A DNA stretch of 64,000 nt. It comes from Paramacrobiotus metropolitanus (taxonomy: Eukaryota > Tardigrada > Eutardigrada > Parachela > Macrobiotidae). Below, piece by piece: positions 43,514 through 64,000 of this stretch. The stretch is from positions 434,001 to 498,000 of the forward strand of contig NW_026570285.1 of the NCBI RefSeq assembly GCF_019649055.1. The letters run 5' to 3'. The position numbers were made by a program, and so were the translations under genes. Below the pieces are notes generated by a model. The model was not told the DNA's origin and searched no databases. It worked only from the letters and a program-made list of their open reading frames with translations. Within the stretch, counting starts at the first letter, position 1; the number at the start of each line of letters is the position of its first letter.

Positions 43514-44335
43514 GGTGGCCTGTAGTAACTTGTAGTCTCGATAGTTTGTGTAGTTGTTTCCTGTAGTCTCGGTAGTTTGCGTAGTTTGCCGTAGTCCCGG
43601 TAGTCTTGGTATTTTGTGCAGTTTTCGGTAGTCTCGGTAGTCTTGGTAGTTTGCGTAGTCTTCGGTAGTCTCGGTAGAGTCTTCGGTAGTCCCGGTAGTT
43701 TCTGCAGTTTTCAGTAGTTTCGGTAGTGTGCGTAGTTTTCTGTAGTCTCGGTAGTTTGCGTAGTTTTCTGTAGTCTCGGTAGTCTTTGTAGTTTGCGTAG
43801 TCTTCGGTAGTCTCGGTAGAGTCTTCGGTAGTCGCGGTAGTTTCTGCAGTTTTCAGTAGTTTCGGTAGTGTGCGTAGTTTTCTGTAGTCTCGGTAGTCTC
43901 GGTAGTTTGCGTAGTCTTCGGTAGTCTCGGTAGGTTGTTTAGTCTTCGGTAGTCCCGGTAGTTTCTGTAGTTTTCACTAGTCTCGGTAGTTCGTGTAGTT
44001 TACCGTAGTCCCTGTAGTCTGGGTAGTTTATGCAGTTTTCGGTGGTCTCGATAGTTTGTGTAGTTTCCTGTAGTCTCGGTAGTTTGCGTAGTTTTCTGTA
44101 GTTTCCTGTAGTCTCGGTAATTTGCATAGTTTTCTGTAGTCTCGGTAGTCTTGGTAGTTTATGTAGTTTTTGGTAGTCACCAGTAGTCTCGAAGCCTGTG
44201 CAGTTTTCTGTAATAACCCTAGCTCGTGTAGCCTGCGTAGTCGCTTGTAGTTTTGTTTTCTTTGTGGCTCCCAGTAGTGTCTATAGTCTTTGTAGTATAA
44301 GTAGGCGCCTGTAGTCTTGTAGTCGTTTATAGATA
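43514..44335. repeat. GTAGT minisatellite, left array
   Basis: About 820 bp of 9-bp units such as GTAGTCTCG, GTAGTTTGC and GTAGTTTTC in varying order, with higher-order repeats of about 120 bp. The same family in the opposite orientation lies at 54365-54545. Frames read through it (YRDYRKL-like) are repeat artefacts. Confidence 0.9.
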
Positions 44336-45626: not shown

Positions 45627-46678
45627 ATGATTAAAGTTTGCCTGTTAGTCGTATTATTTTCGCCCATTGCTGTGTCGGGTGGCTTAAACATAGGGCGACG
45701 GTTATTTGGAATGCGTCCGAAAGTAACCGGTGAGCATTGCAGTGTACAGTTGTATCAAACTGCTTAGATTAATAAAATTCGTATGATGCACCTTTTATGT
45801 AGTGGGAAACGTGTAGTGCGTAATTTTAGTTGTTGGGAATGGTCTGTTGGAAAAAAATAAATATAAATAAATTATTGTTTATTTCCTTGTTTTTTGGTAA
45901 AACTTCTAGCACTTGCCCCAGGACGATCCCCGGGCGATCGTAGTGATAGATTTTACTTGTTTCTTGTTTTAGCCTTTGTAAGGTAACTGTAAGGAATTTG
46001 TGGTTTTCTGTATTCATGATCGTTTTCGCAGGCACCGGGAACTGGCAAGGCCGGATCGTACCACAGCCAGCGCGCACTGGCTCAAACGCTGGACTGCTCA
46101 ACGAATGGTCGAGATTCTCCGAAAGCGGGTCAGTTTCCGGGAGTCGAATTTCGCTGGCGGTGCCAAAAGTGGCATAGTCACCTCTCAAGCAACGCATGCT
46201 GCATCTGTTGGGAAAAGGTGCAGACCAAGCTGCCATCGGAGCTGTAGCGATTGCCGGAGGAACCATACTGGCACAAAATCTTTCCCCAGAACATAACAGT
46301 TCCGTTGCCATAAATGTCAACTTCGTCGTGCTGGCCATCAATGAAACTGAAAACCCACTGGAAAACACTTTCATCCCTCTTTCAACCATCACGACAGCCA
46401 ATACTATGCCGACCACCCTTCTCTCCACGGTGACAGCCAGTACTACGCCGACCACTCGTCTTTCCACAGTAACATCCACATCAGGAGCTACTGACAGTGG
46501 ATCCCCAGCGACAGTTAGTCAGGCGACCGGACTTCTTACTGGCGAGTTTGGCATCATGGTGTACATTGGAATCGGGTTTGCCGGATTCATAACCGTGCTT
46601 ATCGTTTTGTTTGGTGGATGGTATCTTGTGTGCATGCGCGGGGTGAAACGCGGTAATACTGATTATGAAGTGCCATAA
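45627..46678 (+). CDS. Small Ser/Thr-rich type I membrane protein
   Basis: Exon 1 (45627-45729) encodes a signal peptide (KVCLLVVLFSPIAVSGG). The best exon 2 is 46224-46678 (acceptor GGTGCAG), phase 1 on both sides, giving 185 residues: N-glycosylation sites, a Thr/Ser-rich stalk with three LSTVT- or LSTIT-like repeats, one TM helix (MVYIGIGFAGFITVLIVLFGGWYL) and a short basic tail ending DYEVP. An alternative acceptor at 46031/46032 adds 48 in-frame residues but then meets an in-frame TAG at 46175-46177 before the same downstream frame; this could be a poison exon. No family recognised; a cell-surface glycoprotein is inferred from topology. Confidence 0.6.
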
Positions 46679-47639
46679 TTCAGCTGCATTGTGTGTCTAG
46701 TTATGAAATAATCTGTGTCTGTTCGTCGGCGCAATTTTTGATTTTAATAATATGTCTAGGCGAACAACGCATGTTATCGGCTGCTGCGCAAGGCTGCCTT
46801 TTCAACTTTGTAGCATTTTGATGTCATTCGATGTCCATTTATCATTTTTTAAAGCTGTTGTTATTACTCATTGTAAAATTATAATGGTTCACCGATAGCT
46901 AAAAAATGGTAACGCAATTAACCTATCATCGTGACAGAACGGTTAGTTTGGTATCCAATACGTGTAACAGGCTAGGGCCACAAAAAAGTGCACTGGGCTC
47001 CCGTTTGCGGTAAACTCTAAGGTCACGCAGTACGTTAACGTAGTATCAAAAATTGATGTTAAGAAAATGCCGGAAGTAACCATAGGCGACTCAAATACGC
47101 CATTTTTGTTTAGGATAATTTATTAAGTCTGTTGTACTTCAACTGCAGGCAGTAAATGGCAGAACACATTGCGTTTGGTACTTCAACATCTGGCAATGCA
47201 CGTTTCAGTTTAGCCAGTACCTGTAGCACACTGAAATCAGATGTATTTGTTACTCAAGGCGGCTGTGACTCGGCATACGGTGATTTGTTGCTGTGCGAAG
47301 TTTTTGTTTTAGTACACTACGTCAGTACGTTGGAGTAGTGCATTAAAATTTACTGCAGTTATTTAAAGATCTGGTTGTTGACTTGTACGTTTCCTTTAAT
47401 TGTTTCAAGCAAGTCGAGTATAATAATTCAAACTTTCATTTATTAGTGAGTATCTAGGCAGTTCATTTATTAGATTGAACATTTCTGTACGGTTTCGCTA
47501 CCTATGTTGGTGCTCAGAGGATTTCATGGATTTTACATTTTACGATATAAGATGGATAATGGTAGTGCATGTGAACAAAGTCGTACTGCATGCAAGATTG
47601 GTGTAGGTAACTGCATTAGATGAGTTGTGGTCGAAAAAG
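46679..47639. other. Intergenic, nothing recognised
   Basis: AT-rich, with short open frames only. It ends where the degenerate left array of element C begins. Confidence 0.45.
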
Positions 47640-48800
47640 CTGCTAAGAACTATGGGGAGACCGACATTTTGCTGACCGCTATCTTGCTGATCAACGACTT
47701 GCTGACGACTTTTTGCTGAACGACAAAATATTGACCCGATGGTTTGTTGAAACAACAAATGGCTGAACGACAGTTCGCTGAACGACCGCTTGCTTAAAAC
47801 CGACGACACCTTGTTGACCAACGAAACAATTTCCGACGCATCGCTCAAGCGAAAAATTGTTGATCGACATCTGATTGACCGACAGTTCACCTAAGTGACG
47901 CTTAGAAGCCTAATAAAAGGGGGTTAGAAAAATAAGAAAACTAAAAGCTTAAGAACCTAAAAAACATATGAAAAAATATGAACATTAAGAAACCCGAAAA
48001 CCAAAGAAAGTTGAGAGAGCTTAGCAAAACGGCAGCTCTACTTCCTGCCTTTTCGAAGAAGTTATGGTCGACGAACTAGCGGGTCACCGTTCGTTTCCAC
48101 GAAGCCACTTTTGAGCGCGTACGTTCCACGGATGTTACAAAGCAGACGAGAATACCTAAGTAAGACATTTAAGGAACCCGGAAAACCTAAGAAACCTAAG
48201 AAACCTAAGAAACCTAAGAAACCTAAGAAACCTAAGAAACCTAAAAAACCTAAGAAACCTAAGAAACCACGAATGTTACAACGCAAAAGAGAAAACCTAA
48301 GTAAGAAGTTTAAGGAACCCGAAAAACCTAAGAAACCTAAGAAACCTAAGAAACCTAAGAAACCACGAATGTTACAACGCAAAAGAGAAAACCTAAGTAA
48401 GAAATTTAAGGAACCCGAAAAAACCTAAGAAACCTAAGAAACTTAAGAAACCTAAAAAACCCAAGAAACCAAGAAATACCTAAGAAAACTGACAGCACTG
48501 GGTTGACTTCCTTCTCTGTTTGAAACAGGATTTGCGAAGCTCGTTATATTCAACTGGTAAGCAAACTGTCGATCAGCAAGATTGTATCCTCTGTAATGTG
48601 TCGGTCAGCGATTTGTCGATTACCGACCGTTGACCGAAAAGTGAGCTGTCGATCAACGACAGAGTTTTGGCAAAATGTCGACCAGCAAGTTTGCAGAAAA
48701 CAGAATTGTTGGTCTGCAATCTGTCGGTCAGCAATTGGTGTCAATCAGCAACACATCGGTCAGCAAATTGTCGGGCAGCAAAAACGAGGTCGGCAACTTG
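47640..48800. mobile_element. Element C: AAACCTAAG core flanked by inverted degenerate arrays
   Basis: The left array (47650-47885) repeats TTGCTGAACGAC-like units (GACxxxTTGCTGA, about 15-bp spacing). The right array (48555-48795) repeats the complement (GTCGGTCAGCAAxTTGTCG). The core is the 9-bp array listed separately. The arrangement mirrors element B at 29740-30480 (same core in the opposite orientation), supporting one family with about 1.1-kb and 0.75-kb members. No transposase is encoded. Confidence 0.65.
48170..48475. repeat. (AAACCTAAG)n 9-bp array with 93-bp higher-order unit
   Basis: Runs of AAACCTAAG are interrupted by a recurring spacer containing CCACGAATGTTACAACGC and GAGAAAACCTAAGTAAG. 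The spacer-plus-run unit repeats at about 48175, 48270 and 48365 with shortening runs. It reads as KPK repeats on plus and GFLGF on minus, which reflects a 9-bp period divisible by three and is not evidence of a protein. Confidence 0.9.
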
Positions 48801-49183
48801 ACGTGCAACCAGGATGGGACGGGCAAGGATGGTAAGTACGCTGATGGTTTTGCAAATCAACTGATTTTCTGCACGCTAGTTTTTAAAAGTTTCGCTTTTT
48901 AAAAGCACTGCTTTCCATTCCTTGCCACTGTTTTATACTGTATATGGTCATAAAGACGACAAGCATCAGGCAGGTATGGCAACATTACATTTTGCAGGTG
49001 CACGAACAGGGAAGCAATTCATGTGTCAAACTGCGTTGCACGTTTGTCAGCAAAAAATTCTCGCTAGAAAGGCGAGCTACATTCTCATACGTTGAGTCAA
49101 ACGTGCGCTATTGAAAGCCATTCGAATAGCAAACAAAAAACATGCGTTAATGTGAAGTCGGCATTACAAGACATAAAATAACA

Positions 49184-49723
49184 CTATTTTGCATGCATCC
49201 ATGACGCGCTTCGGAATTTTGCCGCGCCTCGTCTAAGTCTCTTTCGTTTTTTGCATTTCGTTACCTCAGAGCAAAAGTTTTTTCGAAATGTCTTCCATGT
49301 TGGGACTAGCTTTGGTATTTCCCGGTCTTTGGCACAGAACGCCTTGTAAGCATGCAGCGGATTAATGCTTGCCAATATAGCTACGCGAAGTTCGCGCAGC
49401 GCCGCTTCCTTAAGGTAAAGGAAAAAACAGTGATTGTAGTCCGGGCCGTGACAATGTGATGTTCGCTCGACTGTTGAACTGGCAGAGCGACTAACTATCA
49501 AGCGCGCTTTGCACGATCTGGCTTTGGAGTGCTGCTGCCAACAGGTATAGATCTGGTGCGATGAAGTATCCTCCCTAGATGCGCGGTAGTAAACAAAGCC
49601 CTGGTGGATCACAAACTGTCCAGGCTCGCAAATACTTATATAATCTACGCGGTCCAATTCGGCTTTGTCTGAAGAAGTGTTGATCGCATTGTCTGGTTTG
49701 TTCTCACTGCATGGCGCGCGAAA
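49184..49723 (-). CDS. FLYWCH-type zinc finger exon (3' terminal)
   Basis: A 180-codon open exon bounded upstream by a good acceptor (TTGCAG at 49724-49729 on the minus strand) and ending in a stop at 49184. There is no in-frame ATG near its start, so it is the last exon of a spliced gene whose earlier exons I could not place. It contains a FLYWCH-like module: QGFVYYRAS, then YTCW with a second Cys in SCKARL, then HCH. A basic tail (KCKKRKRLRRG) suggests DNA binding or nuclear localisation. FLYWCH modules occur in chromatin regulators and in Mutator-like transposases; here no transposase core is visible. It lies inside the segment bounded by the inverted GTAGT arrays. Confidence 0.55.
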   Translation of the reverse strand, partial: FRAPCSENKPDNAINTSSDKAELDRVDYISICEPGQFVIHQGFVYYRASREDTSSHQIYTCWQQHSKARSCKARLIVSRSASSTVERTSHCHGPDYNHCFFLYLKEAALRELRVAILASINPLHAYKAFCAKDREIPKLVPTWKTFRKNFCSEVTKCKKRKRLRRGAAKFRSASWMHAK

Positions 49724-50731
49724 CTGCAATGAGAGTGAAAATTAACTGCCTGGTGTGTCTGTTTGAGGTAATGTTTACTGTAGTTTGCGTCTACATTTTT
49801 CATGCGAATTTTCTTATGACGTGGGGCCCAAATGTAAAGATAACTACTGCATCACTTTTCACCGATCAGTTGGTAAGCAGTTGTTTAAAATGTAAGCTGC
49901 AGGTAATCAGTTGTTGAGAAATTTCGAAGCACTGATTCAGTAGGGTTCACGGAAGCGTTTCTGATTTACATTTCGTTTTTCATGGGACAAAGCCTCAAAA
50001 TGTGCAATGTTTCTCTTAGATCAGCCCAAGATTCTCACTATTACTATTAAAGTACGCAAATCTTCCCGCCGCTGAGCATGATAACGCAAATGCGAATCCG
50101 AAGTGCAAATGTTTGGAAAGGAAATCACAAAAGACGCTGAAATAAAACTCTGTTTTTTAAGGCACTTTAATGCCCACCAACCGGGGCAGCAGCAGCTACA
50201 GACCATTTGAAAAGGTTAAAAGTAAAGGGTAAACAGTAGCCTGCAAGTTGTTGACATCTGTTTTATCGGTTCGTTTTATATGCTGTTTTTATCAATTACG
50301 ACTATGAGCATTTGATTTCTTGAACTTGCATAAAAATGTTGCGTTCAGGCTAGCGGTGGAACGGCCCGCGAGAAATCGTTAACTGTACGGCGCTTACAGA
50401 GGCTTTAACGTATTTGAGCAGCTACGATTTTTGCACGAAACTTCCTGTTACAAGTTAAGCCGTTAAAAAATCTCATTTTGTTCGAATATCGTTCTATAGG
50501 AAGTGGAAGAAGCGTGCTGCATGGAAAGCTAAATTATGCAGGACCGACGTACAGAAGCCGAACAGCAGAAAAAAAACTGAAAGCTATGTTTTACCGTAAG
50601 CGATATTAACTTAAGCATATCATAAGCACCAATGGTTCAGACGAAGCAAAATGACGAACATGATATCAATTAACAGTTGCATATTTCGCCACAAATCATT
50701 ATTGCTGCGAGCAGTTAACCAGTTTTCGTTT
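49724..50731. other. Gap between FLYWCH exon and P-loop gene
   Basis: About 1 kb with no certain exon. Missing upstream exons of the FLYWCH gene should lie here or further right; a minus frame at 50206-50021 (AQRREDLRTLI) is a weak candidate. Confidence 0.4.
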
Positions 50732-53700
50732 TTATTCCAGTCTGCAAGTATTACAGACGCGATTTCGTGCGTTTAGTCGCTTATTCCACTTCTTGGCATC
50801 CCCTTCTTGGCAGGGGATATGGAACCGTCTCTCGCATTTGGTACAGATGACAGTTTTGTCAGAGCCCTTGACATCGTACTTTTGACCGCATGCGGCGCAC
50901 ACAGTTGCACTTACTGCTGCTGGCTTTGGTGTTACGACGCCACTTGTGCCTGCCACCGGGAGAGCCAATGGTCCTGAAATTTATATGGTATGCAGCATAT
51001 TGTAAAACGCCTCAACATTCGTTCCTTTAAAACTTTATTGCTTTAATCAGTTTCCTTTTACTGGATTATACGTCATGAATTCGCTGCATGCTAAACAATA
51101 CAGCGTTAAACGTTCATAATGTGACCAGATCACCCAAAATCTGGTGCGATAGTCGTTACGCGCTTACCAGAAACTCGAGGAATATGAACACTAGAAACAT
51201 TTCTTGCGGAAACCGGAATCACTGGACTGTGGTGATCACCCGATATTTCTTCTTGGGGAACGAATTCCTCTTCGGCATGTGAAGTGACTGAACTCACATT
51301 TAGCACTGGCGTTGAGCTTAGAAATTGGATTTCGGCTTGTGTGGAACTTGCCAAGGGCTGGAATCGATGTCGGCTAGGGTGACCTTTGAAAGGAGACAGC
51401 TGCGCAGACATTCCAGGACCGTTTTCAGGAATCGGCGCTACAAGAAAAATTATAGTTATCATACTTTGTGCCAATCTTCGAAAGCGAAGACATTCATGCT
51501 TTGGCTCTGTATATGGAAGACGTGAAGGTCAACTGTAGCCGCTCAAGAGGTTTTCCGAATATAAGTGATATAGAAATTACTGATAAAATAATAAGCATAC
51601 CCTCGTCGTTTTCCAATTCATCTGTTTCGCCACTCAGGAAGAGCAACTGGTTACTGGTGAACACCGATTTTAGTATACCTTTGCACCGTTTGGTTCCCGC
51701 GTGTGGCGGAAATTTTTGCGGTAGCAAGGATTCGGCATTCGCGTTTTCAAAAAACTGTTTGACATCGCACTGGCGGTCTGGAAGCTCTTGATGAAGTGCC
51801 AAAAACTCATTCACTTTCACGCACACGTGGTTTCCAATAGTCATCACCCGGAAGCAGCCGCTCAGCTGTCAAAGAACATCATAACAGCACAAAAGCAACA
51901 AATATAAAAATTACCCTTGCCTTTTCGGGATCTCTTTCTCGAATCAGGCTAACGTCGCGGCAAAACCCAAACGATTGCTGCTTAATTGTTTCTTTGGCTG
52001 CTACGCCGCGCATGCTTAGTAGCGAACTCACTGCACTTTCCCGGAAAACGTAGTACTGGGCTGCTTGTGGTAACAGTACCGTCAAGACAAATGGTTCCAC
52101 TTTTGGGCACCAATCTCCAAGGTTCACCTTCTTCAGAAACTACAAGCAAAGTTTAAAATAATTTCACAAAATTTCAATGGCTTCGGCGCTATCACAAAGG
52201 GCATACTTCAGTACTTGTACCTACTGTACTTATTCAGTTCAGTACTTCTTCAGTACTTGTACCTACTGCATGGCTAGCGCTACAGTAAAACTGAATAAAG
52301 ATTTTCGTCCGTACTACTGTAGATCTTGGCGTAAAAGACACATTTACAAGAATCAAAAAATCGCTTTAATTTGCTTTATGCATTTCAAATCACTTTTTTA
52401 TGTGAATACTACATTTATACCATGCCGAAGAAAAGCACCTGTGCACGTGCGCTATTACTCTAACGATAAAATTATTCGAGCGACCGATGCAAGCAAAAAT
52501 TTTGTATTTCTCAATACTTACAATTTCAGTTGCAGCTGTCAGAATTGCGTAATTATCAGCAATGCGGTGTTTGCTGTCTGTTACATGTTGATTGATGACG
52601 ATCGAAATCTTTTCACGAAGAGCATGCACTCGACTGCGTAACAGCTGCTTGTCAGCCTGGGTGAAGTTCAGGAGCGAGGGAAAGTGCACCGAGGCTTCGG
52701 CCATACTTTGCTTAATCTGTTCTTGTTCGTCGCTTGTCATTGGGGAAAGCTGAGCTGTCATTGGAATCACGACTGCTCGGGAAAGCGCTTCATACCTGAA
52801 AGAAAAGGTGCTGGCGTTTTCGTTACGTAAACGGGTAAGTTTAGCGAATATGTGGATAATATACATACATATACGCCTTTGTTTACATAATCGGCTTCAT
52901 TAACTCCATTACCGCACCGCTAATTCACCATATATGGTGAAAGGCTTAGCACATTACAGCTTAGGACAAAATGGTCGCATACCCAACATCTCCACATTCA
53001 GTACGAATGCAGCGCAGTGCACTGTACGACTGAGTTCAAAATATCCGTTTCGTACAAGTGCACTGCACCGCTTGCGTACAGAATGCTGGGTATGGGGCTA
53101 TGCGACCATTCAGTCCTACATTGTATGTAGTAAATCTTTGACAATTTATGTTGTACAGATAATAACTTTTTACTGCCCATAGTATGTTGATGTATAATGC
53201 TATAAAAATAGTTGCAGCCCATTAATTTTTGTGGTTAGTGTAATTGTGTTGTATTATTACAAACTAACTTGTATTACAAAGTATTACTTGTACTGATTGT
53301 AATAATAGTATTAAAAGCAATTGTATTAGTAATACTAACTTTCCTTGAAGAAACACCATCTGTCTCTCGTTGCATGTGATGCAAATGCTGCACCCAGGAA
53401 GCATTTGTTGATCGTGTTTCTTGACCGCCCTCCCCTCGTACGTTTTCTGCAGCGCAGTTGCAGCCGTGTTGTTGTCTGGCAAGTCATGCACAATCAAAGA
53501 AAAATGGTCCTCTACACAGTGATAAAATTAAGTTACGTGATTGTGCTTGGAAACTTGAAAATTTGTTTCCTTGCCTGTGTATCGAGCCCGTAGAGCTGGA
53601 AGTGTTAAGTCCTTTGCGACAAATATGTCTAAGGCGTTAACTCCAAGAAAGGATGCACCACTTTCCGCAGACAGCGTTTTTCCGGTTGCACGGGGTCCGG

Positions 53701-54085
53701 TAATGAGTATACTCGGCGCGCAGAGCACCAGCTTTAAGAATTGTTCGTAGTGCAGACTAACGAACGCCGTATGCGCCGCCACCATAAGAAATCCGATAAA
53801 TCTTTCCGTCATCTTGTCCTTCTCAAGTTTGCGGCGTATTACCTCAAGTATATTGATGGTGGTTTCTTCCTTCGCTATCACTAGCGGAACCAGATTTCCC
53901 AATTTAAGTGGAACCCATACGTACTTTGAATCTTTGGATTCTATGGACTTTACGGAGCCGGATGCGATTTCGTAGAAAAGGTCGGGAGCAAACGCAAAGG
54001 TAATTCCGTCGCGTTGTAGGTTTCGGTGCGCAACTGGGATTTTGTCGAATGAAAGCCCTCTACGGTTGCATGAGCTGAAAAACAT
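50732..54085 (-). CDS. P-loop ATPase with C-terminal PHD-like zinc finger
   Basis: Exons 54085-53537, 53509-53340, 52795-52522, 52139-51915, 51865-51601, 51437-51168 and 50973-50732 join in consistent phases (0, 2, 0, 0, 1, 1), giving at least 664 residues. The start is uncertain: an acceptor-like TTTTTCAG lies just inside the first ATG, so an upstream exon may exist. Exon 1 ends with a Walker A motif GPRATGKT; exon 2 has a Walker B-like LIVHDLPD, then KTYEGRAVKKH and a sensor-like CITCNE, an order seen in SF3 helicases and some AAA+ ATPases. Exon 3 continues with an SRAVVIPM strand. Exons 4-6 are unrecognised, with a Ser/Pro-rich linker. The last exon has CAACGQKYD, ICTKCERRFHIPC and VCNTC, a PHD/RING-like Cys4-His-Cys3 pattern. 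Likely nuclear. The family is unknown to me. Confidence 0.65.
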
Positions 54086-54364
54086 GAGTGCACAAAATAG
54101 TATAAAGATATTTGTTTTGGGTATACAGTATTAGAGAGCGATACACATTTTTACAACCAGAAAATGTGCCGGTTGCTGTTTTGGCTTGCACCCTTCTTTC
54201 TAACGAATACACCAATTCAGCTATAAAGAGCGACTACACGTAATTAGGTGATTGCTGGAGCGGCAACGAAAATGTTAAAGACTTTCAAAACAAATGTACG
54301 TCATTTTTCGATAAGGCAGAAACCATGAGTAAAACACATGAATCATAGAAAAACATTTTTTTTT

Positions 54365-54545
54365 AGATTGAGAGACTACAGAAAACTACAGAGACTACCA
54401 AACTATACTACAGGAGACTACCGAGACTACAGAAAACTACGCACTACCTACCAAGACTACAGGAAGCTTCAGAAAACTACGCAAACTACCAAGACTACAG
54501 GAAGCCACGAAAACTACGCGAACTACCGATACTATGATGAATACT
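54365..54545. repeat. GTAGT minisatellite, right array (inverted)
   Basis: About 180 bp of ACTACCGAGACTACAGAAA-type units, the reverse complement of the 43514-44335 array. Together they bracket 10 kb. The gap from the P-loop gene start is about 280 bp. Confidence 0.88.
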
Positions 54546-54579
54546 GACCATTCTGGTGTGCAAACCTACTACAGGGTGC

Positions 54580-54862
54580 TGCAGCAGATGCATGAGCGAT
54601 ACACTCCCGTCGCAGCTGTGCAGCCGTGCTGCACGCGTGCTCACCTGCACAGGCAGCTGCAGCTGCGCTGCGAGTCTCCTTGAGATTCGCACAGCACGTG
54701 TATCAGCGATACACTGGAGCCGCCGTCCAGCACGCAGCATGTGTGTTTACTCAGCAGCCATAGCAACAGACAGGCACACACACACACACACACACACAGC
54801 GTGCAGCACGCAGCACCCGTGTTCACACACACACACAAACACACACACACACACACACATAC
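54580..54862. repeat. CAGCTGCA-rich block and (CA)n microsatellite
   Basis: 54605-54735 is rich in GCAGCTG/CTGCAC palindromic pieces and has two CAGCGATACAC-like copies. Two CA runs follow (about 54776-54800 and 54824-54860). Non-coding. Confidence 0.7.
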
Positions 54863-55384
54863 CCATAAACAGGCAGGCAGATGAGCGCGCGCTCTCTTTC
54901 TCTCACTCTCTGTCTCCCTCTATCATCAGTGTAACCATCATCATTCTGCTCTTGTATGCCGAATGCACTTTCCATGCATCCACTAAGTGAACTGCGATTT
55001 ACAACGCACGCAGGATATCGCTTTCTCTCTTTCCCTCTGTCATGCAGCAGTGGAGAAAATTATTTCGAGAATAAGCGATAAGAAATCCATTTATTAGAGG
55101 TTCTCATGCCCTTAGCAGTATTATGTTGACGTTTATTTTTTGCGTGTCTTCTCCCATTACGATGGCGCCATGATGCTGTGTTGTGTGGATGTGTACGAAT
55201 AAAAACTACACTCAGCTTATCAGTAATTCTTTAGCTCATTGGCCTAACATTATCGTGTTAGTAAGGTAAGTGCAGACAGAAAGAGAGAATCAGATTGTGG
55301 ATTTCACTTTGAAAACACTTCCATGCAGGACGCCCGTCAGTTCTAAAATTTGCAATTGTCGATGACTGTACGCTGTACAAAAGC
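54863..55384. other. Upstream region of the mucin-like gene
   Basis: Pyrimidine-rich CTCTCT tracts (54890-54925 and 55020-55040) followed by AT-rich DNA to the start codon at 55385. It presumably holds the promoter; no TATA box at a typical distance stands out. Confidence 0.4.
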
Positions 55385-58300
55385 ATGTCTCAATTAATTG
55401 TAGGGATAATTATCGTGGTAGCTGGAATATCGCCGAGTGCTGCTGTTGCACTGCAGCGCCCTTTATTATCAAACGGTGCTCTCGCTGCACCCGCAACCGT
55501 TAACCGGGCTGTATCCGCTGCCTCTCTCGCTGCCACCACCTCCCTCGTTGCCTGCCCATATTTCTGTATTTGTCGGGAAACGTTTTGGAAATGCGGTGAC
55601 AGCAAGGTGAACTTGTGGCCGTTGGATAATCAGCCTGGTATTATTGTGAAGGGAGTCAGTATGCTGGATATGACCGGATCGGATGTTAATGTGCTTCCCA
55701 ATTGGCCCCCAACGCATAATTTTCCCGATCTGCAGTTAATATTCCTCTCCCTTACGGTATTTGATGGGTCCAGCCGCTGTCGAGAGTTGGAATGCCTGGA
55801 AAACCTGGGTCTGCGCGTCATTGCCAATCGTTGTCCTGCAGGTATATACTTAACGAGCTAAATAATTACTCTAAATTTAAATGCATTACGGTAAAGTAAC
55901 ATCCGCACCCAGTATGAAACTTGGCAGTGTGATATGTGCACGAGTATTATTATAGGTTTACGTAGCGGTTGTGGATATCCTCCGTGCTGTACGTGGACTA
56001 CCGCAACGACAGCCTCATTTCGACCAGGCTGGAAGCCTAGCACACCGCCGTTTACAACTGGCACCGAATCATGGTCAACAACCACTCCTTCACGTGACAA
56101 GGAGTACAGCACGCGCGCCATGACTCCCGCAGGCGGTGATGATAGCGGTAAGAATGCAACGTCAGCAACAACAGCAACACTATCACAACGTAAAGGCTTC
56201 ACTGTCAGCCCGGCTGTGGGTGTTAATCGTACTATTTCCGCTACTACTACTACTACAACTACTACTACTACTACTACCACCACTACGTTTCCTACTACTA
56301 CCGTCTCTAAGACTACTAGTACTGCTACCGTATTTATCCCGACCTTCATAACAACGATAACAGTGGAGCGAACCTCGCCAACGTTATCGTTGCCACTGTC
56401 AGCGACGACGACGACGACGACGCCGCTGTCGCCGTCGTCGCTGCCAGTCCTTACATCTTCGACGTTTCGCGGGTCTCGGCGGTCATCCGTGCAAACCAGC
56501 AGCACGGTCGGCAGTGGTATTGTGACTCATGCAGCATCATCGTCGGTGATAAATGATAATGACTCAACAACCACAACTGTCAGTCGCGCCAATAGGACAA
56601 GTACGCTAACATCATCAGAAACAACAGCCTTTACGCCGGGCACGGCGCTCACGCCATCGTCGTCGTCGTCTTCGTCGTCAACGACATTGGCGGCGGCGGC
56701 GCTCGTAACGGAAATGGCTTCTAGCTCGATAATACCAGCAGCGTTTGGAACAGCAACGCCAGCAACAGTGCCGGTGTCCAGCAATCATAACGCCACCAGT
56801 TCCGCTAGTAATCGGCTACTAACCCTCGACAATTTTCTGTCCACTACCGCCGTCACCACCACCACCATTTCATTAATGAACAGCACGTCGGCTGCGGCAA
56901 CTGCTGTATATTCTTACATCGGTATTCACGCAAGTGCACCGCGCCTGCATGGCAATTCCCCTTCACCAGTGAACACAAGTATACGCACTAATACCGCTCG
57001 GCCGGAAGTGCAGCAGGAGCCCGGAAATAACAGCATCCGCAGCAGCAGGCGTGACGGCAGCGCTACTGCTAATAATACAGTTATTCCTACGATAATTCTT
57101 AATAACGTCAGTTATGTCCATGGAGGTGGCAACCGCACCGATGGCGGTAGCGACGGAAAAAATAATAATGTTTCGGTTGTGGGCACCGCCACCTCCAGTG
57201 CGTCTTTGCTGTTGTCACCAGCGGAATTCAGCGTTGTCACGACCACCAACCCCGCCACAACCTCCGATGCTACTACCGCGGCAACCGTGTATAATTTGTC
57301 CTGTCCACCGTGTCTGCTTGTAGGTGCAGAAATACGGCGCGGGATGGCATTAGACCAGTTTGCCACAGCAGGAATCAGCGTTGGTGTTATCATCTTGGTT
57401 GCTATAATCGTGATCTGTGTCCTGTGGAAGCGCGGCTTCCGGCTAGGTCGAGTGGGCGGTGTAGGAGCAGCTAGCGGCGGTGGCGCTAACGTCAATCTCA
57501 ACAGCCGGAGCAACAACCCTCGCGTACCGCCACAGCAAGATTCTGCCTTCACTCCGATATTCAATCGAAGTCGCCCACTCCGCCCACAGCAGAATCATAG
57601 TTTCTCACCGACATTCAGCACATCCCGCCCGCGACATATGCCTACGCCTCGCTCCAGCCCACTGGCGTTCCTTTTCTCGCGGCAGCACCGCCCTCCCACC
57701 GACGCACCACCACCACCGCCACCACCGCCGCAGCAACATGAAGCCGTGATCCACTATAATCCCGAATATAACGGTCTGCCGGGGAACGAGGAGAATGGGC
57801 ACGCTGGCGGCATGGGCGGCAGCCCTGGAGACGACAGAATCTATCAGAATGTCGAGTTGAATATTGTTCCTAACCGGGAGGAATGCCGCGGTAGGCGCTG
57901 GCGATATTATGAAACGTGTTTGAATGGCAGTTGCTTTTTCTATGCAATATGTTTCTTTGATAGGATCGCGGAATCTTTTGGACTTTGGGCTCGACAGCAG
58001 CAACAACAGCAGCAACAATTTGGCTAGTAACCAAGGGATTTCTGCGGGTAAGCGCAGCAGCAGAAAAGTATTTGGTTGTTGTTGTAATTTCGCAATCCCA
58101 TTTTTGGAAGAGCTTTTTGTTGGCAGTCAGTGAAGAAGAGGAAGCAGCGAACAGACGACCTCACCGGAATTCTTCCTACTCAACATATTCCGGGTCCCCA
58201 TCGACTCCGCTCCGACACGATACATCTTATCGCGTGAGCGCTGAAGGTACTTTTTAAAGTAAAATATCCCTGCGAATACCTTATTATTACATATTGCCAT

Positions 58301-58815
58301 ATTTAAAACTTTTTTTTGCGGGAAAACAGGTTTCCGTCTGCCGTCACAGATGGCTAGATCACAAGACCGGAGCAGCATCAGTGGGGTCCATGGAATGGAA
58401 TCGATCGAGGAGCAGCAGGATGAGGCTCCCGATGTTTATCTACCATCCAGTGGTGTGGCTGATGGTGAAGAGGAAATGTGGGAGGAAGACGATGTGGGTG
58501 ATGACGATGCCGCCGATTTTGAGAGCGAAGGTAATCTCAAATATTTTCAAACTAACGCTTGGCGTGCTTTAAGTGATCGTTTTACATCTTCGTTTTAAAA
58601 ATAATAATTTTTCAGCTGGTGAGCATGGCTATGACGGCGGCAGCGGCAGTAGGGACGATGGTCGCGGCTACGATTTTCCCCCGCCACCGTCTGACGAAGT
58701 ACCCCCGCCACCTGGACGCCCAGGACGTGGGGGACGCCGACGACGAAACGGTGGAGGTGGTGTTCGGGCATGGGGGCGCGAAGCTGGACGCCGACTGGAA
58801 CGGCACGGGGAATAA
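55385..58815 (+). CDS. Mucin-like type I membrane protein with Cys-rich head
   Basis: Six exons: 55385-55841, 55956-57890, 57964-58047, 58127-58246, 58330-58530, 58616-58815. Every intron is phase 1, GT-AG and 73-114 bp; the total is 998 residues. Order: signal peptide (LIVGIIIVVAGISPSAAVA); Cys-rich domain starting CPYFCICRETFWKC, reminiscent of an LRR N-terminal cap; a Ser/Thr/Pro-rich stalk of about 430 residues with many NxS/T sites and simple ACT-type codon runs (56243-56290); two cysteines (LSCPPCLL) just before one TM helix (ISVGVIILVAIIVICVLW); then a long cytoplasmic tail rich in Pro/Arg/Ser, an acidic block (MWEEDDVGDDDAADFESE) and a GRGGRRRR end. It is likely a heavily O-glycosylated surface protein. 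Exons 3-6 could be skipped singly without breaking the frame. No named family recognised. Confidence 0.82.
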
Positions 58816-59174
58816 ATGTCATCGTAATCGATTTTTTCTCGTAAAATTTTCGGAACACTTTCGTTGGTCTTTTTGGAATTGAAAAACAGCCAAGTGTTGA
58901 CATTTTTATAGTGGAATTATTGGCAAATCTTTTAGTTTCTTTTCACAGAACTTTTTTGTTTTACTATTGCTTAAATAACATAACGGATGTTGATGTGAGC
59001 GTAAAAATTTTTTATGTGCGAATAAGACACCGTCCTATAATTAAGTGAAAGGAACGCAGCGATTCTCGTAATGGTGACTGCAGCAGCGATGACATTTTAT
59101 TATGGTGATCGTAATTAATAGCGCGGTAGCAGAACTTGTCACTCGCGTTGGCTCACATTCCGGGCGTGCATGCA

Positions 59175-60826
59175 TCAGATAACAGCTGTAGGCCTACTAT
59201 TGCCGGAAGCGGAACTAGTTCCCATGCGCTTATTTACAACCACTTGTATCTGACAGTTCAGGCAAAACATGCGCAATTTACCGCGTTTGCGAATAATTAG
59301 CGTGCAGCAGCTAGCACAACGCTGACATTGTACAAAGCTTTTAAAGTAATTTTTTAACACCTGCTGTATGTGACGGACATTGAAGTGGCGGTAGATGTCA
59401 AGATAGGTGTACTTGCGGTAAGCGTCAGGAACATAGCTGGCCGGAGGCTGCGGTTCCAGTCCCGGGCGCGGAATGGCGGTTGATCTGAGAGAAGCCTCAA
59501 AATAGGCATCCAGTGGAACAAGTGGCTGCTCCATAATATTTTGAAAATGATAGAAATTGGAAATGCGCGTCAAGCAGATGAGTGTATAGTGATGAGTGAC
59601 AACGGGCGCAGGCAACGGCTGTTGTAAAAATAAGTGTATATTATATTTTTTAATCAGTCATTTCTCTCCGAATATATGTTTAGTCATGCGACTTACCAAA
59701 ATAAGTGACAAAGCAAGGTGGCTGTTTTGAGGGGACTGTGAGCCGGTTGAGACGTTGGCGGCCAGGGAAATTATGTCGTCCCCATCGTCGTCGTCGTCGC
59801 GGTAAGCATCGGCACTGCTGTTGTTAAAGGTAGGTGTGGTTGGAGGGGCTGCTGGCGGAGTGTTTTCGCGGCAGTCATCTTCTTGGTGGGCACGGTTCGT
59901 GGAGTAAAGCACTGTTACTTCGTATTCGCGGGCTGCTGCGATCGCGGTGCCACCGCCGTCGTCGGCGTCGTTTTCATGGTTATGAATGAGCCTGGCAGAA
60001 TTTGTAGTATTATTGTACGGCGGAGGCGGTGTTGCTGGTGGTGGTGGTGGTGGTGGTGGTGGTGGTGGTCTGGAGGAGGATAACTGGCAACCATCAGTGT
60101 TTAGCCGCTGATCCCTGTCTTGAAGGGGAGCGGCTGACAGAGACCGCTGGCTGGCTAGACGAAGTGACCTTCGCGGCATTTTCTAAAATTATATGCTGGT
60201 GAGATGGTGGTGGTGGTGGTGGTGATTCTGGGGAAAGGGTAGAGGCTGAGGTGGCTTACTCGGCCGCCGCAGGCAATATTCGGAGGGCACTCCAAGATTT
60301 CCAAGATCCTCTTATAGTACCGCTGCAAGATGGTCCAGAGAAGCTGACGAGCAGCGTCGGACTTGGCTGAAAATGTAGTTAGTCCAGAACCAATTACATA
60401 AATGTCTTCGTTGGCCACTGCTGCCTGGCAGTTCCAGCGACTTGCTTCCGCAGAAGGAACGCGGCGATACTCAACGTCAAAATTTAAAACTGTTGCGATA
60501 TTGTCCAACAGATGAGTGAGGCGAATACGGTCGTAATAATCGGATTCTTGTGTCGTCCTGGGCTTTACTGGCTTCTCCAATACGGTCAACAAACACGAAT
60601 AGTAATTACGTAATATTACCGCCAATAATTTCCTAGCTCCGTCTTGTTTAGCCGTTGCGAACGATTTTCCCACACCAACCGCAAAAATTTTTTCAGATAT
60701 GACTGCCGCCTGGCATTTGCAAATGACTTCCTCGTTTCTCTTTCTAGGCAGACTTTTAAAATCGAGATCAAAGGACAAAAGTTTGCCAACAGTTCCAAGT
60801 ATCGCCGTAAAGTGACGCCGAACCAT
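59175..60826 (-). CDS. Two dsRBD-like repeats fused to an eIF2-beta/eIF5-like zinc domain
   Basis: Exons 60826-60260, 60182-59697 and 59618-59175 join at two phase-0 introns, giving 498 residues. The first in-frame ATG (60826) follows a TATA-like box by about 70 bp. Residues about 10-90 and 95-175 are two related repeats, each with a hydrophobic helix, a CQAAV strand, a GxG turn (AVGVGKSFATAKQDGARKLL; VIGSGLTTFSAKSDAARQLL) and a closing helix: the dsRNA-binding-domain pattern, with the usual KKxAK Lys pair reduced to ATAK and FSAK. Residues 190-350 are disordered (poly-Pro, acidic, NxS-rich). The C-terminal 100 residues contain YRHFNVRHIQQVLKNYFK then CQRC and CLNC (C-x2-C, spacer, C-x2-C), closely like the helix plus zinc ribbon of eIF2-beta and eIF5. 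No family with this combination is known to me. It is divergent from the integrase and could be host or element cargo. Confidence 0.66.
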
Positions 60827-60896
60827 GCCGTCTGGAATGGAAAAGTTGCCCACAAACAACCGGGCAACTGCAGAGATCTGCCGGCATACAGTTCGG

Positions 60897-60902
60897 TTTA
60901 TA
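60897..60902 (-). promoter_or_regulatory. TATA box for the dsRBD-zinc gene
   Basis: TATAAA on the minus strand (in GCTTTTATAAACC) lies about 70 bp upstream of the ATG at 60826. On the plus strand the same site reads TTTATAAAA, so it could serve either direction. Confidence 0.5.
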
Positions 60903-61094
60903 AAAGCTGTCCGTAGCTAGCCAGCCAGCCGGTAGGCGGAAACGGCGGCGTGGTCAAGAGGAGTAGCATAATAGTATAATTATCCAGATGTCCGCTTCTG
61001 CACGTGCATCCCCATGGGATACGCTTGCGCACACCCAATCCTGCCTCCCAAGTGGGCGAGACATGTGTTTGTCTGTGTGGGCGTGACTTACTGG

Positions 61095-61105
61095 TATATA
61101 TAAAT
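61095..61105 (+). promoter_or_regulatory. TATA-like element upstream of integrase
   Basis: TATATATAAAT lies about 310 bp upstream of the integrase start codon, with no other gene between. This would leave a long 5' UTR or a short leader intron. Confidence 0.35.
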
Positions 61106-61416
61106 CACCAGCGATTGACAGGCGCGCTTATTCGGACTGCTGACATTAACATACTGACGACTACCACCTGTCGTCACCACCTCCACCGTTATACGTAAAC
61201 GTTCCATTAGTACATCCGTTCATTGCTTTTATTTTGGTGTCAAAAGTGGAATCACAGTGTGCATGTGTGAGTGTGTGAGCGTGCCACAAAACGGGGATTC
61301 TAATAATCTAAGGATATCTTGCAATTACGCACGCTAATTTGGTAAGTGTTTGTACAGAGCAAGCGAGCGAGCGCTAATTGCTGATCAAAACGGCAAAAAA
61401 CCAGTAGTGCGCGAAA

Positions 61417-62490
61417 ATGCCAACAGCTGCTGAAAGTCGACGAAAATCAACCTTGCTGAAGAGACTTTATACTGATGTTGCATCTCCAGCTTATCTTGCC
61501 GGTGCTGGGGCGCTGCATAGGGCGGCCAGAGAAAAACAGAATGAGATACATTCAAAAATAACTTTGCGGGATGTAAAGGAATTTCTCTCGCGGCAAGTTA
61601 TTCACACTCTCCATAAACCTGTGCGGTTCAAGTTTCCCAAACTAAAAAATTTTTGTGTGGGAATTGATAACGTTTGGCATGCAGATCTCGTTGAACTACA
61701 GAAAATTAAAAAGTTCAACGAAAAGCACAGGTATATATTAACGACAGTGGATTGCGTCAGTCGGTATGCCTTTTCCCAGCCTCTGGCTAGCAAGTCAAGC
61801 AACAATGTTGCAAAAGCTATGGAAAAGATTTTCCAAAATAGGCGCCCGGTTGTTTTAGGTATTGTTAATGGTATTTTGTATGTAAATTTTGAACGTACAT
61901 TTTTAAAGGTTCTGTTTTTGGTTTTCTTCTCTGTAGTGACAGATGCTGGGAAAGAATTTCTAAATCACAAAGTGGAAGAAGTTTACGCAAGATACGGTAT
62001 TCGACATCAGATTTCGGCATCGCGGTTTAAAGCAGCGTTAGCGGAGCGTTTCAATCGTACTTTAAAACAACGTTGTTTCGTCATTTTACTCTCACTAAAA
62101 GCCCCAACTGGTTCTCGTCTCTCCAGAATATTGTAAACAACTATAACATGAGGGTGCATGCCGGCACAAAATGAAACCCGCTGAAACAACGGTGCAACAT
62201 CAGTCTCAGCTGTTCAAACTTGGCCAAGAGAAAAGTTCATTAAATTGCAAAAGCCCGCATTCAGGATTGGTGAAGCAGTCCGCGTAGTAATCAAAAAATC
62301 GCAATTCAGCAAAGGCTATACGCGCACATTTTCGGACGAAGTTTTCAAGATTGCTGACATAATTTACGGCCCGGTGATAACGTACCGTCTATCAGATCTT
62401 AACGGGCGAGCAGTAGGAGAAGCTCGAAATCGACCATCGCAGTTTTATAAAGAGGACTTGTCAAGTGTACGGAATCTGTCAGTCGGGTAA
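61417..62490 (+). pseudogene. Polinton/Maverick-type retroviral-like integrase, frameshifted
   Basis: Exon 1 (61417-61858) and exon 2 (from 61937) are separated by a 78-bp phase-1 GT-AG intron that removes an otherwise in-frame insert. The frame shows an N-terminal TLHKPVRFKFP segment, the core with the first catalytic Asp in WHADL, the second in TDAGKEF and the Glu in AERFNRT about 34 residues later: a DDE integrase of the Polinton/adintovirus type. A C-terminal SH3/chromo-like region (FSKGYTRTF, YRLSDLNG) lies in another frame (to 62490). Relative to the family, one-base breaks occur near 62071-62080, 62166-62172 (an A4 run) and 62228-62236, so as written it makes no full-length enzyme. Such integrases insert linear element DNA into chromosomes. 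The catalytic residues themselves are intact. Confidence 0.8.
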
Positions 62491-62523
62491 CAGATATTTT
62501 TACAGGATGCACCTGCAGCAAAA

Positions 62524-63402
62524 ATGATGGACAACGGATTTTATGTCACTCTACACAGCGCGGCCTCGCCGGCTTACGGAACGCTTATACTTCATAATAC
62601 GCCGACACATTTCACCAATAAGTTGCAATTTCCCCTTCTATCCTTTCGGGAGCAGGAAGAGCCCTGGGAAGTTGCCCTCGTCCGTGCCTATTCTTCAGCA
62701 AAACTCACTAGAATTCCACCGGAGCAGCGCCAATTGACTGTTTACCACAGTAGCCCTAATTGTGGTGACGCGTTTTTTGACGGTTTTTTGACTGAGTCGG
62801 ACTTTGAAAAAACACCAGCAGATTTTGTGTCTGCTATCAGCCGGGTAGTGGAAGCCATTATGGTTAGCTGCGGAACAACGTTATGGGCAAACGAAAAGCC
62901 ACAAATTCAGTTGGTTGATGGAAAATTTCAATGGGTCAGCGAAAAAAACGTTTTCCAGTTCGTCAACCGAGGGAACTTGCTGTCGGCCGCTCTTGGACTG
63001 ACGTACGACGAAGTGCTTGGAATTACACGACATCACGTTCTAACTAGTTATTTTCATGGACAGTCGTTTTCGAAGTATGGTGACACTCGGCTTATTCGAC
63101 ACCGCCTTCCTGTCGATCCGGCGCGTGGTCGGCGCCAGGTCATTCTACATCTTAGTCATGTTAATTCAACAGGATTTGGTGGACGTTTGGAAAACGTGCT
63201 AGCGTTGTCAACTGCAGAAGAACTCCAAAAGGGTTATGAACCAAAGAGTCGAGTTTACCTGCCCGTTCAAAACTGGTTCAGTAAAGCTAATCCGGAAGTA
63301 ACGCTGAAATCTGATTGGAAAATGGAGTGGACTGAAGACACCCTGGGAGAAACTACGGTTACTTTGCATTATCGAAAATCTAAGCCGCAAGCGGTAGGAT
63401 GA
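62524..63402 (+). CDS. Intact 292-residue Polinton-associated protein
   Basis: A single open exon. The start reads GFYVTLHSAAS, then a stretch FTNKLQFPL and PWEVALVRA; similar FYVTL-SNSS, FxTKL and WEVALVE openings are familiar to me from proteins that sit beside transposon-derived integrases in many invertebrate genomes. The function in that family is not established to my knowledge; a minor virion protein is one possibility. No TM helix or signal peptide. The rest is rich in beta-type sequence, ending with TTVTLHYRK. Its frame is undamaged although the integrase just upstream (stop 62490, 34 bp away) is broken. Confidence 0.62.
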   Translation: MMDNGFYVTLHSAASPAYGTLILHNTPTHFTNKLQFPLLSFREQEEPWEVALVRAYSSAKLTRIPPEQRQLTVYHSSPNCGDAFFDGFLTESDFEKTPADFVSAISRVVEAIMVSCGTTLWANEKPQIQLVDGKFQWVSEKNVFQFVNRGNLLSAALGLTYDEVLGITRHHVLTSYFHGQSFSKYGDTRLIRHRLPVDPARGRRQVILHLSHVNSTGFGGRLENVLALSTAEELQKGYEPKSRVYLPVQNWFSKANPEVTLKSDWKMEWTEDTLGETTVTLHYRKSKPQAVG

Positions 63403-63552
63403 TCATGATGATGATGATCTTGGCGCTCTTCACTAGGTTGAATAGTTTGTGTCGTAATTTTAATTGCTTTCTAGTTTTTTGTCTGGTCGCAGTGTTGTGG
63501 GCGTGGTTAGTTAAGTGTGGTGGTGTTTCCTGCACTTTGCAGGTTGATGATG

Positions 63553-63560
63553 TATAAAAG
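63553..63560 (+). promoter_or_regulatory. TATA box upstream of structural-type genes
   Basis: TATAAAAG, a near-consensus TATA box, lies about 330 bp before the capsid-like start codon and 110 bp before the arginine-rich frame. An AATAAA at 63652-63657 could be the poly(A) signal of the preceding gene. Confidence 0.5.
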
Positions 63561-63661
63561 GAAGGTAAAGTGTAGGTTGGAGCATTCATTAATTGTTTGC
63601 TGCGTGTAGTCTGTAAAGTGTTTTCTGACACTGCTTGCACGCTTGGTCCACAATAAATAAA

Positions 63662-63879
63662 ACGGCTAAATCTTACGGTAGAAAAAGAAGGAGGCGAGCC
63701 AACCGGTCTGTAATTAAGGCGGACAATAGTTCAGTCTACAGTAATTGGAAAATATCGGAGACGACGACGACGGCGACGACGAAGAGGAACGCGACGATCT
63801 CGACGCCGAACGATACGCACTGGTCTTTTTCAAAAAATAACGCGTGGAAAATCACTGGCATCTATTGTTTAGAAGTAAA
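63662..63879 (+). pseudogene. Arginine-rich, core-protein-like sequence in two frames
   Basis: One plus frame from 63662 contains a KRRRRA block without an ATG; a second frame contains a continuous run of nine arginines (about 63756-63784) followed by RRSRRR-type sequence to a stop near 63868. Small arginine-rich basic proteins encoded next to the capsid gene are usual in Polinton and adenovirus-like genomes, where they condense DNA in the particle. Here the two basic blocks are in different frames with no initiation codon, so the gene looks damaged, or a short intron is missed. Confidence 0.4.
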
Positions 63880-64000
63880 ATGGCTTCAGCTGCGAAAAGT
63901 CAAGCGACTATTGAAAAGTTTCCGGATGAGTTGCAATTATTCGATCCGCCAGTCAGTCAATCTACCATTGAAAGCAGTCATACAATGGAGTTCTTACCCT
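63880..64000 (+). CDS. N-terminus of a Polinton/adintovirus capsid-like protein (cut by window end)
   Basis: An open frame begins at ATG 63880 and runs off the window after 40 codons. It contains ELQLFDPPVSQSTIE then MEFLP. This matches the opening (ELxLF-x-PPTQ-SIE, then VEFxPL) that I recall for the protein paired with integrases in invertebrate Maverick elements (C. elegans F54H12.2-like), interpreted in the literature as the double jelly-roll major capsid protein. Only the first 40 residues are visible, so the call rests on this motif, gene order and the arginine-rich frame before it. Confidence 0.55.
   Translation, partial: MASAAKSQATIEKFPDELQLFDPPVSQSTIESSHTMEFLP

What the first reader, a model, noticed from the sequence alone, without database searches (positions are those of the whole stretch)
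59175..60826. Novel fusion: paired dsRNA-binding-like domains with an eIF2-beta/eIF5-type zinc domain
Seen: three phase-0 exons give one 498-residue frame with two similar dsRBD-like repeats (GxG turn, AK-x-x-A-A/G-R-x-L-L helix) and a C-terminal helix plus C-x2-C/C-x2-C ribbon resembling eIF2-beta. Known: dsRBDs sense dsRNA; the eIF2-beta C-domain binds mRNA and initiation partners. Inference: a protein coupling dsRNA recognition to translation initiation, either a host antiviral or stress factor, or element cargo that interferes with such a response. I know of no family with this architecture.
Basis: partly seen in the sequence, partly recalled or inferred. Interest (0 to 1): 0.82.

Follow-up and report, generated by a model that had tools for sequence, protein, structure and literature searches.

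The report
Two overlapping genes, not a fusion
A virus-like element repeated in a tardigrade genome carries two overlapping genes, one for a double-stranded-RNA-binding-type protein and one borrowing a piece of a translation factor; the claimed single fused protein is not supported, but the pair looks new and appears to be read from one message by ribosomes that skip the first start.

Summary
The domains are real; the fusion is not. On the minus strand, ORF A (60826-60155) encodes two dsRBD folds (AlphaFold pLDDT 86; PF00035 at E<=1 in 16 of 16 aligned copies). ORF B (start 60179, one intron) ends in an eIF2-beta-type zinc ribbon (PF01873, 16 of 16). They are cargo of a Polinton/Maverick-like provirus in a tardigrade genome (Paramacrobiotus metropolitanus, by an identical NCBI protein): A at 25 loci, B at 26, one integrase clade beside A at 24. 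Intron 2 is conserved, and NCBI's model of B starts at B's own ATG. In 24 copies B's ATG lies from 86 nt inside A to 2 nt after A's stop. ORF A is stripped of ATGs: 0 internal Met in 1317 codons versus 47 in 2727 control codons; out-of-frame ATG 11 observed, 32.2 expected; controls 89 versus 92.9. This is the signature of leaky scanning on a two-gene mRNA. Likely role (inferred): A interferes with Dicer/dsRNA sensing, B acts on translation initiation. No RNA evidence was available.

The parts
60155..60826 (-). ORF A: 223-aa tandem dsRBD protein (dsRBD1 about residues 1-84, dsRBD2 about 92-178), own stop at 60157-60155
59697..60179 (-). ORF B exon 1: starts ATG 60179-60177, 161 codons, Pro/Ser/acidic linker without lysine, with motif RENTPP and donor-side LSLIL; overlaps ORF A by 25 nt
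   Evidence: NCBI model P0001, identical to copy C361, starts at the equivalent ATG
59619..59696 (-).
   Evidence: exact junction in P0001
59178..59618 (-). ORF B exon 2: 147 codons, eIF2-beta-like helix plus zinc ribbon about 59250-59396; stop 59177-59175
60183..60259 (-).
61417..62490 (+). Integrase (rve, PF00665 E 3.2e-11), divergent from ORF A, apparently with an intron near 61860-61940 (read by eye); the frame is interrupted further on in this copy
62491..63402 (+). 303-aa ORF of the element, no Pfam match
54552..64000 (.). Portion of the provirus inside the window; left limit of homology with copies C32 and C74 at about 54552-54582, right part continues beyond the window (L072, L075)
55313..58816 (+). 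Thr/Ser-rich transmembrane ORF and downstream exons in the left arm of the element
   Evidence: position; nature read by eye from the translation

Best explanation
The locus is a two-gene accessory module of a Polinton/Maverick-like provirus lineage in a tardigrade. Shown by sequence: ORF A encodes a protein of two dsRBD folds; the overlapping ORF B encodes a separate protein of a Pro/acidic linker plus an eIF2-beta-like zinc ribbon, with one conserved intron; A is almost free of ATG in all frames while B is not; both genes evolved under purifying selection. Inferred from that: one mRNA carries both; some scanning ribosomes start at A's ATG (mostly G at -3), the others pass on to B's ATG (mostly A at -3), so A and B are made together in a set ratio. 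Inferred with less certainty: A acts as a decoy or partner in the Dicer pathway (its nearest structures are Loqs, TRBP and R2D2), and B engages the 40S/48S initiation complex through the ribbon, so the pair dampens dsRNA-triggered defence and adjusts host translation early in the element's cycle.
For: Separate ORFs: own stop of A and an ATG at B's start in 24 of 24 copies inspected, B exon 1 open from it to the intron in 17 of 24; would-be fusion out of frame in 3 of 5 copies that have the donor; NCBI model LOC129602211 (251 aa) is exactly B of copy C361 without dsRBDs. Conserved intron of B: acceptor at PLP in 23 of 24 copies, GTRAG donor in 15 of 24, and GTA after LSLIL in the other 8 non-inverted ones. 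Leaky scanning: out-of-frame ATG in A of 7 lineages 11 versus 32.2 expected (0 of 2000 synonymous randomisations as low), 10 control ORFs or exons 89 versus 92.9; internal Met 0 of 1317 versus 47 of 2727 codons, Fisher 1.2e-8; B exon 2 of 7 lineages 33 versus 29.7; 0-4 ATG in the 535-775 nt between the two starts of 21 copies. Selection: dN/dS 0.05-0.19 in 10 of the 13 pairs with a finite estimate. Provirus: integrase, PolB, A32-like ATPase, thymidylate kinase, RNR small subunit in the same copy; integrase of at least 50% identity beside A at 24 of 25 A loci (list of 11 is capped). Folds.
Against: No transcript, ribosome or protein data were available, so a shared mRNA is inferred. A's ATG is not in a plainly weak context (G at -3 in 20 of 21, G at +4 in 21 of 21). 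The 7 lineages are related, so the depletion counts are not fully independent; six of twelve copies are not individually significant (P 0.11 to 0.42). TGA is also below expectation out of frame, in A (39 versus 54.1) and in controls (110 versus 130.0), so composition or codon context plays some part; CTG and GTG are in excess in A (53 versus 39.0, 33 versus 21.8). Several copies keep 2-4 intervening ATGs. B exon 1 is broken in 6 of 24 copies. dsRBDs lack the canonical lysine pair. The ribbon model is of low confidence (pLDDT 40). No homologue of A was found in the collections searched.
Confidence: 0.72

Rival explanations
1. One spliced gene makes the fused 498-residue protein.
For: GT...AG and phase 0 on both sides in the window copy; A and B adjacent and in the same order in the copies compared, apart from one inverted copy.
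Against: Intron-1 donor only in the window's own subgroup, and out of frame in three of its five members; no room in five distant copies; the one NCBI model found has B alone; an ATG at B's start in all 24 copies inspected. ATG depletion of A has no reason under a single-start gene.
Confidence: 0.06
2. B is made from A's mRNA by stop-start coupled reinitiation rather than by leaky scanning.
For: ATGA overlap in six copies, TGA-A-ATG in two, TAA plus two bases then ATG in three; an overlapping stop/start is used by influenza B segment 7 (PMC3035654, start of abstract in the listing).
Against: Overlap reaches 71-86 nt in eight copies; coupling gives no reason for A to lose ATGs. It may act together with leaky scanning.
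Confidence: 0.15
3. A and B have separate promoters and transcripts and are neighbours only by layout.
For: Viral genes often overlap (general knowledge); NCBI annotated B alone in the one model found.
Against: Strong ATG depletion in A that is absent from B exon 2.
Confidence: 0.1
4. The pair serves the element's own replication or transcription rather than host interference: A as an RNA- or protein-binding scaffold, B as a zinc-ribbon nucleic-acid protein.
For: Lysine pair missing from both dsRBDs; ribbon lacks the rest of eIF2-beta.
Against: The ribbon profile matches eIF2-beta chains (11 of the 12 solved sequences listed at E<=1; the twelfth is another zinc finger) and A's fold matches Dicer-partner dsRBDs among other dsRBDs.
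Confidence: 0.3

Closest known systems
Loquacious/TRBP/R2D2 tandem dsRBD proteins
   Different: 14-19% identity in those two alignments, KKxAK lysine pair absent, encoded by a provirus, no sequence homologue found outside this genome
dsRBD proteins of invertebrate DNA viruses (IIV-6 340R; DRBM proteins of a baculovirus, a nudivirus and an iridovirus)
   Same: Viral dsRBD proteins; 340R suppresses RNAi (PMC4231766, abstract and passages read); BFVD fold matches to DRBM proteins
   Different: Different virus type, no eIF2-beta-like partner gene known to me, canonical lysine pair not kept here
eIF2-beta / aIF2-beta C-terminal domain (PF01873)
   Same: Helix plus C-x2-C...C-x2-C ribbon; copy profile matches archaeal IF2-beta 6.8e-7 and a eukaryotic eIF2 subunit 2 (28zu_F) 1.1e-6
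   Different: In the window copy only positions 67-115 of 117 of the profile match; no central alpha/beta domain, no lysine in the first exon
Bicistronic leaky-scanning genes of green algae (PMC11291117, preprint, passages read)
   Same: Second ORF reached by scanning past the first; an added upstream ATG lowers the second product; some loci have overlapping stop and start codons
   Different: Algal host genes with reporter experiments; here a provirus of an animal, by sequence only
Polinton/Maverick elements and adintoviruses
   Same: Integrase, PolB, A32-like ATPase
   Different: Introns in B and apparently in the integrase (vertebrate Mavericks: none observed in intact elements, PMC8097293 passage), extra thymidylate kinase, RNR small subunit and OTU ORFs, and the A/B pair

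Membership tests
dsRBD (PF00035) | alpha-beta-beta-beta-alpha fold and profile match | tested here: met
   Two such folds at pLDDT 86; PF00035 in 16 of 16 copies at E<=1, best 8.2e-10, window copy 0.0012 and under the curated cut-off; PKR dsRBD pair 1.5e-4 by profile. A genome search with PF00035 did not list the element copies at E 0.001
dsRBD (PF00035) | KKxAK lysine pair that contacts dsRNA (motif recalled) | tested here: not met
   No row of 16 has both lysines in either domain; one row has one in dsRBD2; the AK pair is kept
dsRBD (PF00035) | Binds dsRNA | not testable with these tools
   Needs an assay
eIF2-beta / eIF5 (PF01873) | C-terminal helix and zinc ribbon | tested here: met
   PF01873 in 16 of 16 copies at E<=1; profile to eIF2-beta structures; C-x2-C and C-x2-C kept, the first Cys lost in one of 16 rows
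eIF2-beta / eIF5 (PF01873) | Central alpha/beta domain (profile positions 1-66) | tested here: not met
   Match in the window copy covers 67-115 of 117 only
eIF2-beta / eIF5 (PF01873) | Lysine-rich N-terminal blocks (feature recalled) | tested here: not met
   No lysine in the 161 codons of B exon 1 of the window copy
Single fused dsRBD-eIF2-beta protein | Conserved splice junction joining A to B in frame | tested here: not met
Bicistronic gene read by leaky scanning | Upstream ORF depleted of ATG up to the second start | tested here: met
Bicistronic gene read by leaky scanning | Both ORFs on one mRNA; B output depends on A's start | not testable with these tools
   No RNA data or reporter
Polinton/Maverick | rve integrase, PolB and A32/FtsK-type packaging ATPase together | tested here: met
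   PF00665 3.2e-11, PF03175 1e-26, PF04665 3.8e-6
Polinton/Maverick | Double jelly-roll capsid protein and adenain-type protease | tested here: inconclusive
   A capsid-like ORF in L072 (my reading) gave no Pfam match; no protease of that type among the ORFs scanned
Polinton/Maverick | Terminal inverted repeats and element ends | tested here: inconclusive
   Left homology limit near 54552; right end not reached, no match of 80 nt or more between window 44001-64000 and L072 or L075 in either direction

The most novel reading that the evidence does not exclude
A virus-like element of an animal makes, from one AUG-poor two-gene message, a Dicer-partner mimic and an eIF2-beta-ribbon mimic; the ribbon protein itself lowers or tunes start-codon stringency, so that the second protein of a leaky-scanning pair regulates the scanning that produces it.
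Probability: 0.1. Interest if true: 0.88.

Novelty: new variant of a known kind. Interest (0 to 1): 0.6.

Why it matters
It replaces an apparent new protein architecture with a testable gene-expression device: a conserved overlapping gene pair in animal proviruses in which the first gene has lost nearly all start codons so that ribosomes can reach the second. It also gives a Polinton-like lineage in tardigrades an accessory set (dsRBD pair, eIF2-beta-like ribbon, nucleotide-metabolism genes) for which I saw no report in the listings (open-licence PubMed Central text only), and it offers an entry point to how such elements meet RNAi and translation control in a phylum where, as far as I know, this is little studied.

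Tried and rejected
Fusion by splicing: rejected. Fusion by ribosomal frameshift: rejected as a general rule, because B's frame relative to A is +1 in some subgroups and +2 in others. Host gene: rejected, since both genes are dispersed in 25-26 copies with a provirus integrase. Relatives elsewhere: IMG/VR by single sequences of ribbon, dsRBD, ORF 62491 and integrase and by alignments, phage records, protein database (one hit: none: none); apart from that one hit all were empty. PF00035 over the own genome listed 17 matches at E 0.001, none at the 25 A loci, so copy counts rest. The ribbon structure model is too poor to use; its weak Foldseek matches begin with eIF2-beta or aIF2-beta in initiation complexes (best E 0.015, none under 0.001). 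Beside two distant integrases (39 and 40% identity) of the same genome, 3.0 kb upstream each, no A or B was found (2 of many such matches in the capped list). PHROGs gave nothing decisive; NCBIfam IF-2 beta models match the ribbon far below their cut-offs.

Mended on checking: one control (thymidylate kinase) was read one base out of frame and two RNR pieces overlapped; one search repeats the test with these put right, and the report uses its figures (one search had 11 versus 31.8, controls 92 versus 97.7, Met 44 of 2753). Two control pieces (ORF 62527 and the capsid-like one) end with or hold one stop codon.

Dropped rows: copies C10 (no dsRBD match) and C186 (partial) were left out of the 24-copy tables; the 7 lineages are one copy per subgroup; one search used 12 copies; one search used 21 copies (C111, C127, C13 lack A's start in the match used). 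The B test used C11 and C95 where the A test used C55b and C99. In the dN/dS table (15 pairs) two have no finite dS and three lie outside the quoted range: A C361-C17 0.46 and B C11-C127 0.59 above it, B C361-C17 0.02 below it.

Full report
What was checked. The finding lies on the minus strand. Three open segments are there as stated: 60916-60155, 60182-59658 and 59657-59175. The question was whether that is one gene.

Where it is. A protein search with the ribbon exon returned one relative, NCBI LOC129602211 of the tardigrade Paramacrobiotus metropolitanus (251 aa). Both its parts, before and after LSLIL, are letter for letter in copy C361 of this genome, so the window comes from that species or one very near it. 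In the 170 Mb genome ORF A has 33 matches at 25 loci, the ribbon 28 matches at 26 loci, and searches with two other, distant copies found the same loci and no more (one search also lists the host eIF2-beta-like locus C154 at E 0.0014). An integrase of at least 50% identity lies beside A, divergently, at 24 of the 25 A loci (the list is capped). The other listed integrase matches, at about 40% identity or less, lie elsewhere; 3.0 kb upstream of two of them was read and holds neither gene. The same copy carries PolB (PF03175, 1e-26), an A32-like ATPase (3.8e-6), thymidylate kinase (5.3e-22), ribonucleotide reductase small chain (5.3e-50) and, further on, an OTU-like protease (4.9e-6). This is a Polinton/Maverick-like provirus; its left limit of homology is near window 54552, its right end was not reached.

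Not a fusion. (1) In the 24 copies inspected A's frame runs to its own stop, and an ATG stands from 86 nt before the end of that stop to 2 nt after it: ATGA in six copies, TGA-A-ATG in two, TAA-AA-ATG or TAA-GA-ATG in three, 11 nt overlap in four, 71-77 nt in five, 86 nt in three, 25 nt in the window. From it B exon 1 is open, in frame, to the intron in 17 of 24; it is broken in C148, C222, C11, C57, C95 and C13, and in C55b the rest of B is inverted. Five copies have just 34-35 nt from the first base of A's conserved ILD codons to that ATG. (3) The NCBI model begins at B's ATG and uses exactly the second junction, LSLIL|PLP. That intron has its acceptor in 23 of 24 copies and a GTRAG donor in 15 of 24, with GTA after LSLIL in the other eight non-inverted ones; its length is no multiple of three in several copies. 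(4) A length-suited search (172-547 aa) found no annotated protein with these dsRBDs, fused or not (one search was also negative). That is no proof of absence.

A sign of leaky scanning. Between A's start and B's start (535-775 nt) 21 copies have 0-4 ATGs in any frame; apart from two in C95 they are out of frame and open 1-45 codons. With proteins held fixed and codons redrawn by the usage of control ORFs, seven lineages of A have 11 out-of-frame ATGs against 32.2 expected (0 of 2000 draws as low); ten control ORFs or exons of the same provirus copy have 89 against 92.9. Internal methionine codons: 0 of 1317 in A, 47 of 2727 in controls (Fisher 1.2e-8, which corrects a control frame). In B exon 2 of seven lineages it is 33 against 29.7: the depletion is absent after B's start. 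Against this: lineages are related; six of twelve copies are not significant alone; TGA is also below expectation in A (39 versus 54.1) and in controls (110 versus 130.0), CTG and GTG are above it in A; and A's ATG has G at -3 in 20 of 21 copies and G at +4 in all 21, which is not a plainly weak context, while B's has A at -3 in 17 of 21 (the ranking of contexts is recalled). A preprint on green algae reports by reporter mutation that the second ORF of such pairs depends on the first ORF's start context, falls when an extra ATG is put upstream, and that some loci have overlapping stop and start codons (PMC11291117, passages read).

What it most likely does. Viral dsRBD proteins of invertebrate DNA viruses can suppress RNAi; 340R of IIV-6 binds long dsRNA and siRNAs (PMC4231766, abstract and passages read). 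I propose that A blocks or diverts a Dicer complex and that B acts on the initiation complex; both are inferred. That eIF2-beta zinc-finger mutants relax start-codon choice is recalled, and is the ground for the bold reading that B tunes the scanning that makes it. I saw no description of this pair in the listings, nor in the passages sought in PMC11071193, PMC11071296 and PMC8363768; these searches cover open-licence PubMed Central text only. One tardigrade transposon paper mentions Maverick once and this genus not at all (PMC11071193, passage).

Verdict. Domains right, element cargo right, fusion wrong. A new accessory gene pair of a known kind of element, with an unusual and directly testable mode of expression.

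Noticed in passing
L072:1737-2528 (-), L072:4448-5568 (+), L075:6202-6930 (-): Thymidylate kinase, ribonucleotide reductase small chain and OTU-like protease ORFs in or next to the Polinton-like provirus, to my knowledge unusual cargo for such elements.
   Followed up: partly
window 55313-58816 (+): Long Thr/Ser-rich ORF with a transmembrane stretch and downstream exons in the left arm of the provirus; looks like a mucin-type glycoprotein (read by eye).
   Followed up: partly
L023:591-1611 (+) against L023:1504-2037 (-): In copy C55b gene B lies inverted relative to gene A, so a small inversion happened inside the module.
   Followed up: partly
L014, L015, L016 (copies C21b, C222, C27), about 114-123 nt upstream of the ribbon exon: A second partial copy of the start of the ribbon exon with its own acceptor lies inside the intron.
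   Followed up: no
window 38012-38911 and 42399-43205 (+): Two paralogous F-box-like ORFs in tandem, probably host genes (reading of the translation only).
   Followed up: no
window 26059-27009 (+): Reverse-transcriptase-like ORF of a non-LTR element (reading of the translation only).
   Followed up: no
window 6200-7302 and 32344-33435 (-): Multi-pass membrane ORFs that resemble chemoreceptors (reading of the translation only).
   Followed up: no
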